DNA of 64,000 nt from an uncultured Bacteroidota bacterium (GCA_903824665.1 CAIJXT010000008.1:26357-90356); one strand, 5' to 3'; counted from the first letter of the stretch, positions 10,304 to 27,113 are shown. The notes: a model not told the origin generated them from the sequence alone. Numbers and translations: made by a program.

Positions 10304-12148
10304 GTGGAAGCAAGAAAGAAACGAAATATTAAAAGCGGTGAGCAGTACAGCCGATTGTTCCCGGAAGCAAATACAGCTACGCATACCATAATGACAAATG
10401 CGGGAGTAGGCGATACTGTGGCATTTATCCCGAAAGTAGTGCGTAAAACACTCGATCATACAAAGGCTATTGCTAAAGTACTGAAAGGAAACAGTGACTA
10501 TGACACATGCCGTAATATCTGGCAATTCGTGTACGACCACATTGCGTACCGCAGGGACAAAGATGGCTATGAGCAGATAAGAAGCCCGGCAAGATCATGG
10601 CATGACCGTCAAGCAGGAGTTGATTGCGATTGTTACACCACGTTCATCAGCAGCATACTTTCCAATTTAGGTATTGCGCATAAGTTGAGAATTACGAAGT
10701 ACAGCAAACCCTACTTCCAGCACATCTATCCTATTGCCAACTGTAACGGCAGGGACGTAATACTGGACTGTGTTACAGACCAATTTGATTTTGAAGTACC
10801 ATACAGTGAAAAAAAAGACTATCCAATGGATCTACAATACTTAGATGGCTTAGATGATATAGGCTACAATGACAACCGCCTGTTTGACGGCACGGGCGAA
10901 ATGGAAGAATTAGGGAAGCTGTTTAAAAAGAAAGCAAGCGCACCTGCCTCCGGTGGCGGCAATAAAAAGGGCGGTGGCGTATTCAAAAAGATCGGCGCTG
11001 CCGCAAAAAAGGTCACAAAAGCAGCCGGAGGAGCGGTAAAGAATACAGGTAAGAAAATAGCTACCACAGCTAAAAAAGCCAACCTGAAAAAGGTGCTGAA
11101 TGTCGTTAACAAAGTAAATCCGGCAACGGTAGCCCTTCGTAATGGATTGTTGGCAGGCATGAAGCTGAATGTAAGTAATGTGGCAAAGAGGCTCCGGTGG
11201 AGTTACCTCACCCCCGATCAGGCAAAAGCAAAGGGGATGCAGATGGACAGGTGGAATAAGCTGGTACAGACTAGACAAAAGCTGGAGAACATCTTTTATG
11301 GTGCTGGTGGCAACCCTGCCAATCTGAAAAAGGCAATACTCGGTGGTAAAGGCAATAGCGATAAGGCGGTAAATGGCTTTGATGGCTTTGATGGCTTGCG
11401 AAACCGCAGTGATGCAGCACAAATGAGCGTACATACTTCTTTGTCGCAACTGCTCGGCCCTGAAATATACTATTCTGAAAACGGATATCAGTCGCTTGGT
11501 GAATTAGGAGAACCGGTTACCCTTGCGGTAGTTGCCGCAGCATCGGGCGCAATCGCAACGATTGCCGGGCTTATCAAGAAAATTGGCGACATCTTCGGTG
11601 GCAAGGGTGAAGGCTCTAAAGATTTCAACGAGGCTGAAAATGCAGTAGCTGAAAAAGAAACTCAGGCGATCACCCAACAAGCAAACGAAGCTGGTGTATC
11701 ACCTGCCGAAACATTTACGCCTACAAGCCCATCTGCAACCAATGAAGGCGGTGGCGGATCGCCCGGAAGTGCCACACCCCCGTCTGCTTCATATGACAAC
11801 CCAATGCCCAGCGACAGCGGTGGTGGAACTACTACGGCTGTTTCGCCACCAGCGCAGACGAGTACCGAAGCAACCGAAAGCGGAGAAAAGACAGCGGCAA
11901 AAGCTGCCACAGATGCAGGCAATAACGAAGAAGGATTTTGGAACAAGCATAAAAAGTGGCTGCTTCCGGTGGGAATAGGTATAGGAGGGTTAACGATAAT
12001 AGCCATAGCCGCCTCTGCCATGAAATCGAAATCCAATACCCCTATACCTGCAAAGGCAAAACCTATGCACGGGCTGCCATCCAGAAAAAACCACCAAAGA
12101 AGCAAAGGAAAAAAGCAGGGCAAGAAAAAATCAGTCAAACTGTTGTGA
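10304..12148 (+). CDS. Transglutaminase-like cysteine peptidase domain protein with Lys/Ala-rich region, NGFDGFDGL motif and C-terminal TM
   Basis: VDCDCYTTFISSIL ... YFQHIYPI ... VILDCVTDQF (Cys-His-Asp transglutaminase-like triad); C-terminal WLLPVGIGIGGLTIIAIAASAM. Confidence 0.7.
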   Translation: MEARKKRNIKSGEQYSRLFPEANTATHTIMTNAGVGDTVAFIPKVVRKTLDHTKAIAKVLKGNSDYDTCRNIWQFVYDHIAYRRDKDGYEQIRSPARSWHDRQAGVDCDCYTTFISSILSNLGIAHKLRITKYSKPYFQHIYPIANCNGRDVILDCVTDQFDFEVPYSEKKDYPMDLQYLDGLDDIGYNDNRLFDGTGEMEELGKLFKKKASAPASGGGNKKGGGVFKKIGAAAKKVTKAAGGAVKNTGKKIATTAKKANLKKVLNVVNKVNPATVALRNGLLAGMKLNVSNVAKRLRWSYLTPDQAKAKGMQMDRWNKLVQTRQKLENIFYGAGGNPANLKKAILGGKGNSDKAVNGFDGFDGLRNRSDAAQMSVHTSLSQLLGPEIYYSENGYQSLGELGEPVTLAVVAAASGAIATIAGLIKKIGDIFGGKGEGSKDFNEAENAVAEKETQAITQQANEAGVSPAETFTPTSPSATNEGGGGSPGSATPPSASYDNPMPSDSGGGTTTAVSPPAQTSTEATESGEKTAAKAATDAGNNEEGFWNKHKKWLLPVGIGIGGLTIIAIAASAMKSKSNTPIPAKAKPMHGLPSRKNHQRSKGKKQGKKKSVKLL

Positions 12149-12177
12149 ATCATCTTCAACAATTAAAACAAACCAAA

Positions 12178-12810
12178 ATGGCAAAACAAAAGAAAGGCGG
12201 CAAAAATAAGTTTGCCCAGAAAGCAAAACAGGCTGGATTTATTGACTTTCATCAGCGATTACAGACGAAGGACAACATAAAAAATTCAGCCCTCGAAACA
12301 GGCAAAGATTTACTGATTGGTGTAATAGGTGGCGGTGTGGCGGGTGCGGCAATAGGTAAACCCTCCCTCCTTGTTGGAATCGGGTTAACAGGTGCGGGAC
12401 ACTTCACGGACAACCACTTGTTAAAGCTGTTCGGTATCGGGTTGATGGCAGCCAATGGCTTCCAAAGATCAAAATCTGTGAACGGGCTGGAAGGGCTGGA
12501 CAAACAAGCAATCCTCAACCGCATACAAGCCTACAAAGACAATTTTTCTGAGAAGCTTTTTATAGACAAACTGACTGGCAGACGTTCTGCTAACACTGAA
12601 TCTGCAAATGGTATTGGGGAACTCCAGTTCTTCAATTACCCAAACGATGTGAATGGCGCATACGATGAACTGGCAGCCCTTGAGGACTTGGAACAGCAAA
12701 TTGCACAAAGCGGTATCGACCAGATGCAGGTATCGGGCATGGGTGAGTTTGGAGAATTTGGGGAAATGGGAGAACTGGCATCTATAGACGCATCAGATTT
12801 AAACCTGTAA
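12178..12810 (+). CDS. Gly-rich hydrophobic (probable membrane/virion) protein; likely start 12178 rather than 11956
   Basis: DLLIGVIGGGVAGAAIGKPSLLVGIGLTGAG; contains SVNGLEGLD, SANGIGEL, GMGEFGEFGEMGEL. Confidence 0.6.
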   Translation: MAKQKKGGKNKFAQKAKQAGFIDFHQRLQTKDNIKNSALETGKDLLIGVIGGGVAGAAIGKPSLLVGIGLTGAGHFTDNHLLKLFGIGLMAANGFQRSKSVNGLEGLDKQAILNRIQAYKDNFSEKLFIDKLTGRRSANTESANGIGELQFFNYPNDVNGAYDELAALEDLEQQIAQSGIDQMQVSGMGEFGEFGEMGELASIDASDLNL

Positions 12811-25638: not shown

Positions 25639-25649
25639 AATATAAAACC

Positions 25650-27113
25650 ATGTACACACCAGACAATTATTATGCACAAATCAATAGCTTGGTTTTCAAC
25701 TCGCTTCCTGAAGCCCTTCGCAAAGGACATGACTTCGTAACCAAGGTTACCAGCAATGGTACAAACTGGACTAATTATCATTCCAGCGAAACCATCAAAA
25801 AAACAATCAATACCTATTTTGATAAACTGGCTGATTTTGTCGGCAACACAAAGAAGGCAGCTAAGACTTCCTCCCGAAAAACAAAGCAGAAGGAAACGGC
25901 AAAGGAGATCATGGTAGAAGCTATGCGCAGACAAGGCAAATCCAAAGCCAGCAAAGTAGTTTCCGAACATCAGCCCACAATGGTGGAACGTATGCCGGAT
26001 GAGATACGTTTTATCAGGCGTTTTGTGAACCTTGACGGCAAATCTAAAACAAAGGAAGAGGTGTTAACCTTTCTCAATAGTCTCCAAAAATCCATTCTGG
26101 AGAAGAAGATACGCAAAACATCGCCTTATGCCGAACAAATCCGGTTTATTCAGAACAGGCTAATTGAAACCTATAATGAAATGGGTGCAAAAATCGCCTT
26201 TCAGCTAAAGCCAGAAACCCATGAGGCGCTCAATAAAATAGCAAATGACGAAAAGGTGATGCCTTCAGTAGGCTTTATCAAGCGATACATCAACCTAAAT
26301 GGCAAGGTTGGGATGAAAGAAAAGGCAAAAATGCTGCTGAGGCAGATAAACCGGGCATACGATAAGGGAAACGTAAAAGATAGCGACCAATACATCATAC
26401 AAATGCACGAGATCAAAAAGAACCTCGAAACCTTCATTGCAGATAAGAATGTAAAGATGTTGAAAATTGAGAGGAACAGCCTGAATGGCTTGGAAGGTAT
26501 TCTCGGCGGTTGTTCCTGCCATAACCTGAATGGTTTTGATGATGATTTACAAGGCGATAAGCCGGTAATCATGAATAGCATGGACTTTGCCAATATGCGC
26601 TTCAAAACACTTGGTTTAGGCGGTAAGTGGCTAGATTTGATAGGTGATCCGTCAACAAATTTTTCTATCATGGTATTCGGGAAGCCTAAAATGGGCAAAT
26701 CCTATTTGTGTATTGATTTTGCCGGATACCTGGCACGCAATCATGGAAAGGTACTGTATGTGGCCAAAGAAGAAGGTTTGGATAAGACCTTGCAAGACAA
26801 ATTGAATGACAAGGAAGTGAAACACCAGAACCTCTATGTTGCTTCTGCCCTACCTGATAGCTTGTCCTACTATGACTTCATCTTTCTGGATAGTGTAAAT
26901 AAGCTCGGCTTGCAACCAGAAGAATTAAACAGGTTAAAGGCAATGTACCCGCAAAAAGCGTTTATCTACATTTTTCAAACAACTAAGGATGGTAGGTTCA
27001 GAGGGGCAAATACATTCCAGCATGATGTAGATAGCGTAATAGAAGTGCCGGAGAGAGGTAAAGCGGTGCAATTTGGTAGGTTTAATCAGGGTGGGGAATT
27101 GGACATTTTTTAG
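25650..27113 (+). CDS. RecA-fold ATPase with N-terminal helical region and NGLEGILGG linker
   Basis: VFGKPKMGKSYLCIDFAG Walker A, YDFIFLDSVN Walker B; RadA/KaiC-like pattern. Confidence 0.7.
   Translation: MYTPDNYYAQINSLVFNSLPEALRKGHDFVTKVTSNGTNWTNYHSSETIKKTINTYFDKLADFVGNTKKAAKTSSRKTKQKETAKEIMVEAMRRQGKSKASKVVSEHQPTMVERMPDEIRFIRRFVNLDGKSKTKEEVLTFLNSLQKSILEKKIRKTSPYAEQIRFIQNRLIETYNEMGAKIAFQLKPETHEALNKIANDEKVMPSVGFIKRYINLNGKVGMKEKAKMLLRQINRAYDKGNVKDSDQYIIQMHEIKKNLETFIADKNVKMLKIERNSLNGLEGILGGCSCHNLNGFDDDLQGDKPVIMNSMDFANMRFKTLGLGGKWLDLIGDPSTNFSIMVFGKPKMGKSYLCIDFAGYLARNHGKVLYVAKEEGLDKTLQDKLNDKEVKHQNLYVASALPDSLSYYDFIFLDSVNKLGLQPEELNRLKAMYPQKAFIYIFQTTKDGRFRGANTFQHDVDSVIEVPERGKAVQFGRFNQGGELDIF

What the first reader, a model, noticed from the sequence alone, without database searches (positions are those of the whole stretch)
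11361..26540. Shared NG[LFI]xG linker motif in at least five different proteins of element A
The same short motif recurs at apparent domain junctions in unrelated proteins: KAVNGFDGFDGL (10304 ORF), KSVNGLEGLD and ESANGIGEL (12178 ORF), EFNGIEEY and GVDGLDDAEL (12864 ORF), KAVNGLGSLGEI (15427 ORF), NSLNGLEGILGG and HNLNGFDDDL (25650 ORF). Consensus is roughly [KN][AS][VLA]NG[LFI][EDG]x[LFI]. Repeated use across unrelated proteins suggests a shared processing site or virion-assembly/docking peptide.
Basis: partly seen in the sequence, partly recalled or inferred. Interest (0 to 1): 0.88.

Follow-up and report, generated by a model that had tools for sequence, protein, structure and literature searches.

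The report
Shared cut-site-like motif in tailless prophage
Several unrelated proteins of a widespread, apparently undescribed tailless prophage of Bacteroidota carry the same short, conserved linker motif, which most likely marks where the virus's own transglutaminase-like protease cuts them while the particle matures; cutting itself has not been shown.

Summary
A motif-blind pattern count recovers it as the top pattern. It recurs at the same linkers in about 30 related elements and about 60 held-out ones. It lies between folded domains and is low-confidence in AlphaFold. The element is an integrated tailless-virus-like element: its 238-aa protein has a jelly-roll capsid fold, nearest solved match SPV1. 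It is absent from 50,697 phage records.

Three findings favour a cleavage site over a docking peptide. (i) A transglutaminase-like enzyme with an invariant C/H/D triad heads the operon, and a motif begins about five residues after its domain. (ii) In distant elements that site matches linkers of the coiled-coil protein of the same element (p=5e-5). (iii) Gene fusions and splits coincide with the motif: ATPase gene split there in two lineages, LEA14-like and TG proteins fused there in Persicobacter, RadC-helicase fusions joined by GLxG.

Cleavage is inferred, not demonstrated. Docking remains the main rival.

The parts
5046..6602 (-). Serine recombinase, presumed integrase at one edge of the element
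   Evidence: ORF with resolvase-like sequence; w5046 homologues in L045 and L050; attachment sites not found
9818..10300 (+). LEA14-like membrane-anchored protein, separate gene here; fused to the TG protein through a motif in Persicobacter pPP10
   Evidence: weak LEA_2 match; profile matches residues 7-128 of the fused pPP10 protein, E 8e-14
10304..12148 (+). Transglutaminase-like (TG) protein, 614 aa; TG domain about residues 10-175, then Lys-rich linker, helical domain, linker, C-terminal hydrophobic helix
   Evidence: DUF553 E 4e-4; C108, H140, D155 invariant in 31 sequences; AlphaFold and Foldseek
10838..10867 (+). Motif YLDGLDDIGY immediately after the TG domain, possible self-processing site
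11363..11398 (+). Motif KAVNGFDGFDGL in the second linker of the TG protein
11486..11515 (+). Motif-like YQSLGELGEP between helical segments of the TG protein
   Evidence: aligned motif column in relatives, low pLDDT 397-401
12178..12810 (+). Putative membrane protein with acidic, motif-bearing C-terminal tail (210 aa)
   Evidence: family alignment; hydrophobic N-terminal part inferred from sequence
12472..12501 (+). Motif KSVNGLEGLD
12598..12630 (+). Motif ESANGIGELQF
12736..12777 (+). Repeated motif-like tail GMGEFGEFGEMGEL
12864..13580 (+). Jelly-roll capsid protein candidate, 238 aa, with disordered N-terminal arm
   Evidence: AlphaFold pLDDT 77.7, residues 1-23 below 50; Foldseek to SPV1 and other capsid proteins; about 1600 homologues
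12870..12893 (+). Motif EFNGIEEY in the capsid arm
12915..12944 (+). Motif GVDGLDDAEL in the capsid arm
14220..15439 (+). Three small beta-rich proteins (14220, 14650, 15107 ORFs), possible minor capsid proteins; no motif
   Evidence: inference from sequence and synteny; no structure predicted; no Pfam or PHROG match
15427..16254 (+). Coiled-coil protein, possible scaffold (275 aa)
   Evidence: profile finds it in 49 elements; scaffold role is inference
15706..15741 (+). Motif KAVNGLGSLGEI between N-terminal domain and coiled coil
16496..17188 (+). Annexin-repeat protein with N-terminal hydrophobic segment; no motif
   Evidence: Pfam Annexin E 1.2e-7, above cut-off
20923..25638 (+). Methylase/strawberry-notch-type helicase; no motif here, but relatives carry a RadC domain joined by GLxG
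25650..27113 (+). Two-domain protein: N-terminal domain (1-270) and RecA/AAA-type ATPase (303-478)
   Evidence: AAA_24 and PHROG 6891
26475..26510 (+). Motif NSLNGLEGILGG, first copy in the ATPase linker
26520..26549 (+). Motif HNLNGFDDDL, second copy, beside a CxC at 26508-26519

Best explanation
The motif is most likely the shared cleavage site of a virus-encoded maturation protease. The element is an integrated tailless, jelly-roll-capsid virus of Bacteroidota. Its virion proteins (TG protein, membrane protein, capsid-protein arm, coiled-coil putative scaffold, ATPase) are made as multi-domain precursors whose domains are joined by disordered linkers carrying the motif. The transglutaminase-like cysteine enzyme at the head of the operon would release itself at the motif right after its own domain and cut the same motif in the other proteins during assembly. 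Shown: shared motif, conservation, linker position, intact catalytic triad, element-specific matching between TG and coiled-coil proteins in distant elements, gene fusions and splits coinciding with the motif. Inferred: that cutting occurs, that the TG-like domain does it, and the exact scissile bond.
For: Enrichment over shuffles and host; motif-blind recovery; confined to linkers, near chance in most folded control regions; replication in 58-61 held-out elements, e.g. 12178 tail 58/61 vs 9.5 shuffled, TG second linker 56/61 vs 8.4. TG triad C108/H140/D155 invariant in 31 sequences; confidence falls at residue 178, where motif 1 begins; nearest folds include TG-like cysteine proteases and LapG, and LapG is a proven C-H-D protease cutting between two small residues (PMC3032545). 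In 17 distant elements the TG-adjacent 5-mer matches the coiled-coil linkers of its own element: p=5e-5; controls N-terminal domain p=0.78, TG domain p=0.45. Architecture: ATPase gene split at the motif in L046 and in Persicobacter pPP10, where the upstream gene ends ELAGLQKVCGRGK; LEA14-like protein fused to TG in pPP10 with NGLSGELGQLG between them, while 113 family members are stand-alone; RadC fused to helicase through GL[DESQ]G in 7 of 8 cases, the host RadC ending at LADEGLI.
Against: No cleavage or virion proteomics data exist. The motif is degenerate. The capsid arm matches the relaxed pattern in only 14/31 and 19/58 elements, and capsid proteins of distant elements show no match (p=0.55). 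L031 carries a tandem array of about ten copies in one membrane-protein tail, which fits multivalent binding better than cutting. A first, unanchored co-variation test did not discriminate and the near clade showed none (p=0.70). In the anchored test the coiled-coil C-terminal control reached p=0.013, and three of the TG sites were picked by hand. The TG fold match has modest E-values (0.007-0.05), and DUF553 scores just under the Pfam cut-off. L046's split could be a frameshift; pPP10 is one record.
Confidence: 0.6

Rival explanations
1. Docking peptide: the motif is a short linear motif that binds a common virion partner (capsid inner face, membrane protein or scaffold) and gathers proteins into the particle, without being cut.
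For: Tandem arrays (GFDGFDGL, GEFGEFGEMGEL; L031 array) suggest avidity; conserved flanks around some copies (GELQYF in the 12178 family); co-divergence between proteins is equally expected from a shared binding groove.
Against: Does not by itself explain why gene splits and fusions fall at the motif or why one copy begins about five residues after the TG domain.
Confidence: 0.27
2. The TG-like domain is a cell-wall peptidase used at entry or exit and has nothing to do with the motif; the motif is a separate assembly signal.
For: Foldseek also lists the pseudomurein endoisopeptidase PeiP; the operon carries other wall enzymes (endolysin-like 13632 ORF; Amidase_2-like 18206 ORF).
Against: Element-specific match between the TG-adjacent 5-mer and coiled-coil protein linkers; TG protein is itself a motif-rich multi-domain protein in the virion operon.
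Confidence: 0.08
3. Compositional artefact: flexible acidic Gly/Leu-rich linkers converge on similar strings without function.
For: Motif is degenerate and rich in G, L, D, E.
Against: Shuffles of the same linkers give far fewer hits; linkers differ in length and composition while the motif stays; same string in non-homologous proteins of distant elements (window ATPase NGLEGILGG, pPP10 membrane protein QGLEGILGE).
Confidence: 0.05

Closest known systems
T4-type prohead protease (gp21) with cleaved capsid-targeting propeptides; SPN3US gp245 (AXE motif)
   Same: One short motif shared by several head proteins and cut during maturation (PMC7411985)
   Different: Tailed phages with HK97-fold heads and a different protease family; here a jelly-roll capsid and a TG-like cysteine enzyme, and no cleavage shown
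Adenovirus-type maturation protease sites, (M/I/L)xGx|G and (M/I/L)xGG|x (from general knowledge)
   Same: Hydrophobic-x-Gly-hydrophobic core shared by many virion precursors of a jelly-roll virus; LNGL|GEI would fit
   Different: Protease family differs; many copies have D or E where adenovirus needs G; sites here unproven
LapG / BTLCP transglutaminase-like cysteine proteinases
   Same: C-H-D triad in a TG-like fold; Foldseek probability 1.0; cuts a small-residue linker (PMC3032545)
   Different: Periplasmic, c-di-GMP-controlled, single adhesin substrate; sequence similarity not detectable
Sulfolobus polyhedral virus 1 (Portogloboviridae) and realm Singelaviria
   Same: Single jelly-roll capsid proteins; SPV1 is the nearest solved match; realm defined in PMC12714852
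   Different: Archaeal viruses or other bacterial lineages; no sequence similarity; no HerA/FtsK-type ATPase recognised here
FLiP and PhiCjT23, jelly-roll phages of Flavobacterium
   Same: Lipid-containing tailless phages of Bacteroidota
   Different: ssDNA, other jelly-roll architecture (PMC9719478, abstract seen); no related sequence found in the phage collection

Membership tests
Viral maturation protease system (works like) | Candidate protease encoded with the virion genes | tested here: met
   TG-like gene heads the operon and is syntenic in near and far elements
Viral maturation protease system (works like) | Catalytic residues conserved | tested here: met
   C108, H140, D155 invariant in 31 sequences
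Viral maturation protease system (works like) | One site motif shared by several unrelated virion proteins, in accessible linkers | tested here: met
Viral maturation protease system (works like) | Precursors are cut at the motif by this enzyme | not testable with these tools
   needs biochemistry or virion proteomics
BTLCP / transglutaminase-like cysteine proteinase | C-H-D triad | tested here: met
BTLCP / transglutaminase-like cysteine proteinase | Family profile above cut-off | tested here: not met
   DUF553 20.2 bits vs cut-off 20.5; Transglut_core 13.5 vs 23
BTLCP / transglutaminase-like cysteine proteinase | TG-like fold | tested here: inconclusive
   Foldseek probability 1.0 to TG-like proteases and LapG but E 0.007-0.05
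Singelaviria (single jelly-roll viruses) | Single jelly-roll major capsid protein | tested here: inconclusive
   SPV1 6oj0_A E 1.2e-4, probability 1.0, but TM 0.37-0.47
Singelaviria (single jelly-roll viruses) | FtsK/HerA-type packaging ATPase | tested here: inconclusive
   only a RecA/AAA_24-type ATPase recognised
Singelaviria (single jelly-roll viruses) | Two major single jelly-roll capsid proteins and an internal membrane | not tested
   small proteins 14220-15439 not folded
Caudoviricetes (tailed phages) | Terminase, portal, HK97-fold capsid | tested here: not met
   none among 20 element proteins scanned with Pfam and 10 with PHROGs

The most novel reading that the evidence does not exclude
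A transglutaminase-fold cysteine protease serves as maturation protease of a previously undescribed, phylum-wide lineage of tailless jelly-roll prophages, cutting a shared site whose sequence drifts together in enzyme precursor and substrates of each lineage.
Probability: 0.45. Interest if true: 0.85.

Novelty: new variant of a known kind. Interest (0 to 1): 0.7.

Why it matters
If right, it gives a common prophage lineage of Bacteroidota a maturation mechanism and a new viral use of the transglutaminase fold. The lineage has about 1600 capsid homologues in metagenomes yet no record among 50,697 phages and two contigs in IMG/VR. The site-plus-protease pairing is directly testable in cultured, harmless strains that carry the element, and the motif itself is a handle for recognising virion proteins that otherwise match nothing.

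Tried and rejected
Any NG[LFI] counts as motif: rejected, since helicase copies (SAGNGLL, RGLDGI) lie in conserved domains and the helicase family is only weakly over shuffle (12 vs 5.7). Helicase N-terminal FADEGLL as a motif: rejected as the ordinary RadC end (host RadC ends LADEGLI); only the following GLxG counts. Unanchored 6-mer co-variation test: not informative, a control was as significant; an intermediate version's coil control turned out to contain a second motif site. Tailed-phage remnant: no hallmark genes. Attachment sites and tRNA target: no repeat over 9 bp between the edges, only tRNA at 58334. TG split in L041/L116: breaks inside the domain, taken as frameshift or assembly error. 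PDB sequence search for the TG profile and ATPase: nothing useful.

Full report
Observation. A count of reduced-alphabet patterns that knew nothing of the motif put hydrophobic-x-Gly-hydrophobic-x-Gly patterns (h.GhaG, Gh.Gha, haGh.G, aGh.Gh) at or near the top, 5.5-7 times over shuffle, with little or no excess in the host.

What the element is. It runs from a serine recombinase (5046-6602) to about 27113. The 238-aa product of 12864-13580 has about 1,600 homologues in 5.8 billion proteins but none in the phage records and only two contigs in IMG/VR. Its AlphaFold model (pLDDT 77.7) is jelly-roll-like; the best solved match is the capsid protein of Sulfolobus polyhedral virus 1, followed by large-DNA-virus capsid proteins. 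TM-scores are low (0.3-0.5), so this is a fold-class statement. No tailed-phage hallmark was found among the proteins scanned. Related elements sit in 27 of 399 genomes of the family, in other Bacteroidota families and on a Persicobacter plasmid. Named carriers include Puia, Niastella, Flavisolibacter, Chitinophaga and Sediminibacterium.

Where the motif sits. In about 30 near relatives it is found at the same places: after the TG domain (20/29 vs 2.8 shuffled), TG second linker (27/29 vs 3.1), 12178 tail (19/21 vs 3.6), capsid arm (14/31 vs 2.5), linker before the coiled coil of the 15427 protein (16/21 vs 0.75), ATPase linker (5/12 vs 0.8). Most folded control regions are near chance; one exception, 10/29 in the TG core, is a conserved string of the domain itself. 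In 58-61 elements not used before, the pattern held, strongest in the TG second linker, 12178 tail and coiled-coil linker; the controls were near or modestly above chance (coiled-coil remainder 18/59 vs 6.5). Orthologues are not independent, so these counts show conservation; independence comes from recurrence in non-homologous proteins. In the TG model, confidence is above 90 over most of residues 10-175 and falls below 50 from 178; the capsid arm 1-23 is below 50.

Distant elements. In a second group of Bacteroidota the operon is syntenic but the string differs: G[LM][NSAQ][AGS]P. Element by element, the site after the TG domain resembles linkers in the coiled-coil protein: GMNAP with GMNAPGMNAP (L087), GLQAP with GMQAP (L085), GMNSA with GMNAA (L029). 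In 17 elements this same-element match gave p=5e-5 by permutation, with no signal in the coiled-coil N-terminal domain (p=0.78) or the TG domain (p=0.45); the C-terminal control was weakly positive (p=0.013). The membrane protein did not reach significance (p=0.15) and the capsid protein showed none. A cruder earlier version did not discriminate and the near clade gave p=0.70. I take this as moderate evidence for a common recogniser.

Cut or dock. Three architectural facts point to cutting. The ATPase gene is broken at the motif linker in Niastella (L046, first product ends LNGLQGILGCNCQQLNGNE) and in Persicobacter pPP10 (first product ends ELAGLQKVCGRGK). In pPP10 the LEA14-like protein, a separate gene in all 113 other family members collected, is joined to the TG protein with NGLSGELGQLG between the two. 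Where a RadC domain is joined to the helicase, GL[DESQ]G follows the ordinary RadC end in 7 of 8 cases. Linkers are natural places for fusion and fission, so this is suggestive, not proof. The candidate enzyme has an invariant C-H-D triad and resembles TG-like cysteine proteases including LapG, a demonstrated protease (PMC3032545). Against cutting stand the tandem array in L031 and conserved flanks of some copies, which suit docking. T4 propeptides do both, targeting and then being cut (PMC7411985), so a mixed role is possible.

Verdict. A real, conserved, virus-specific linear motif, most likely the cleavage site of a TG-like maturation protease (0.6), docking next (0.27). Shared cleavage motifs are a known kind in viruses; the enzyme fold, the virus lineage and the lineage-specific drift make this a new variant. 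Literature searches in open-access papers found no description of this element or such a protease; subscription journals were not searchable.

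Noticed in passing
L031 4051-4719: Membrane-protein tail made of about ten tandem copies of DGLGGY-type motif
   Followed up: partly
window 26508-26519; L078, L080, L081, L083, L034 membrane proteins; L079, L088 TG proteins: A CxC pair recurs next to the motif in non-homologous proteins; function unknown
   Followed up: no
window 16496-17188: Annexin repeats in a prophage structural operon, conserved in relatives
   Followed up: no
window 31638-34982 (-): 1114-aa protein built of GGGxxN-type repeats outside the element, probably beta-helical
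   Followed up: no
L051 5932-6552: Second, diverged copy of the capsid protein gene next to the first
   Followed up: no
NZ_AP025302.1 (L172, L173): Persicobacter plasmid pPP10 carries the structural module, so the lineage may also exist as an extrachromosomal virus
   Followed up: partly
whole family: About 1600 capsid homologues in protein databases but two IMG/VR contigs and no phage record: virus-finding tools seem to miss this lineage
   Followed up: partly
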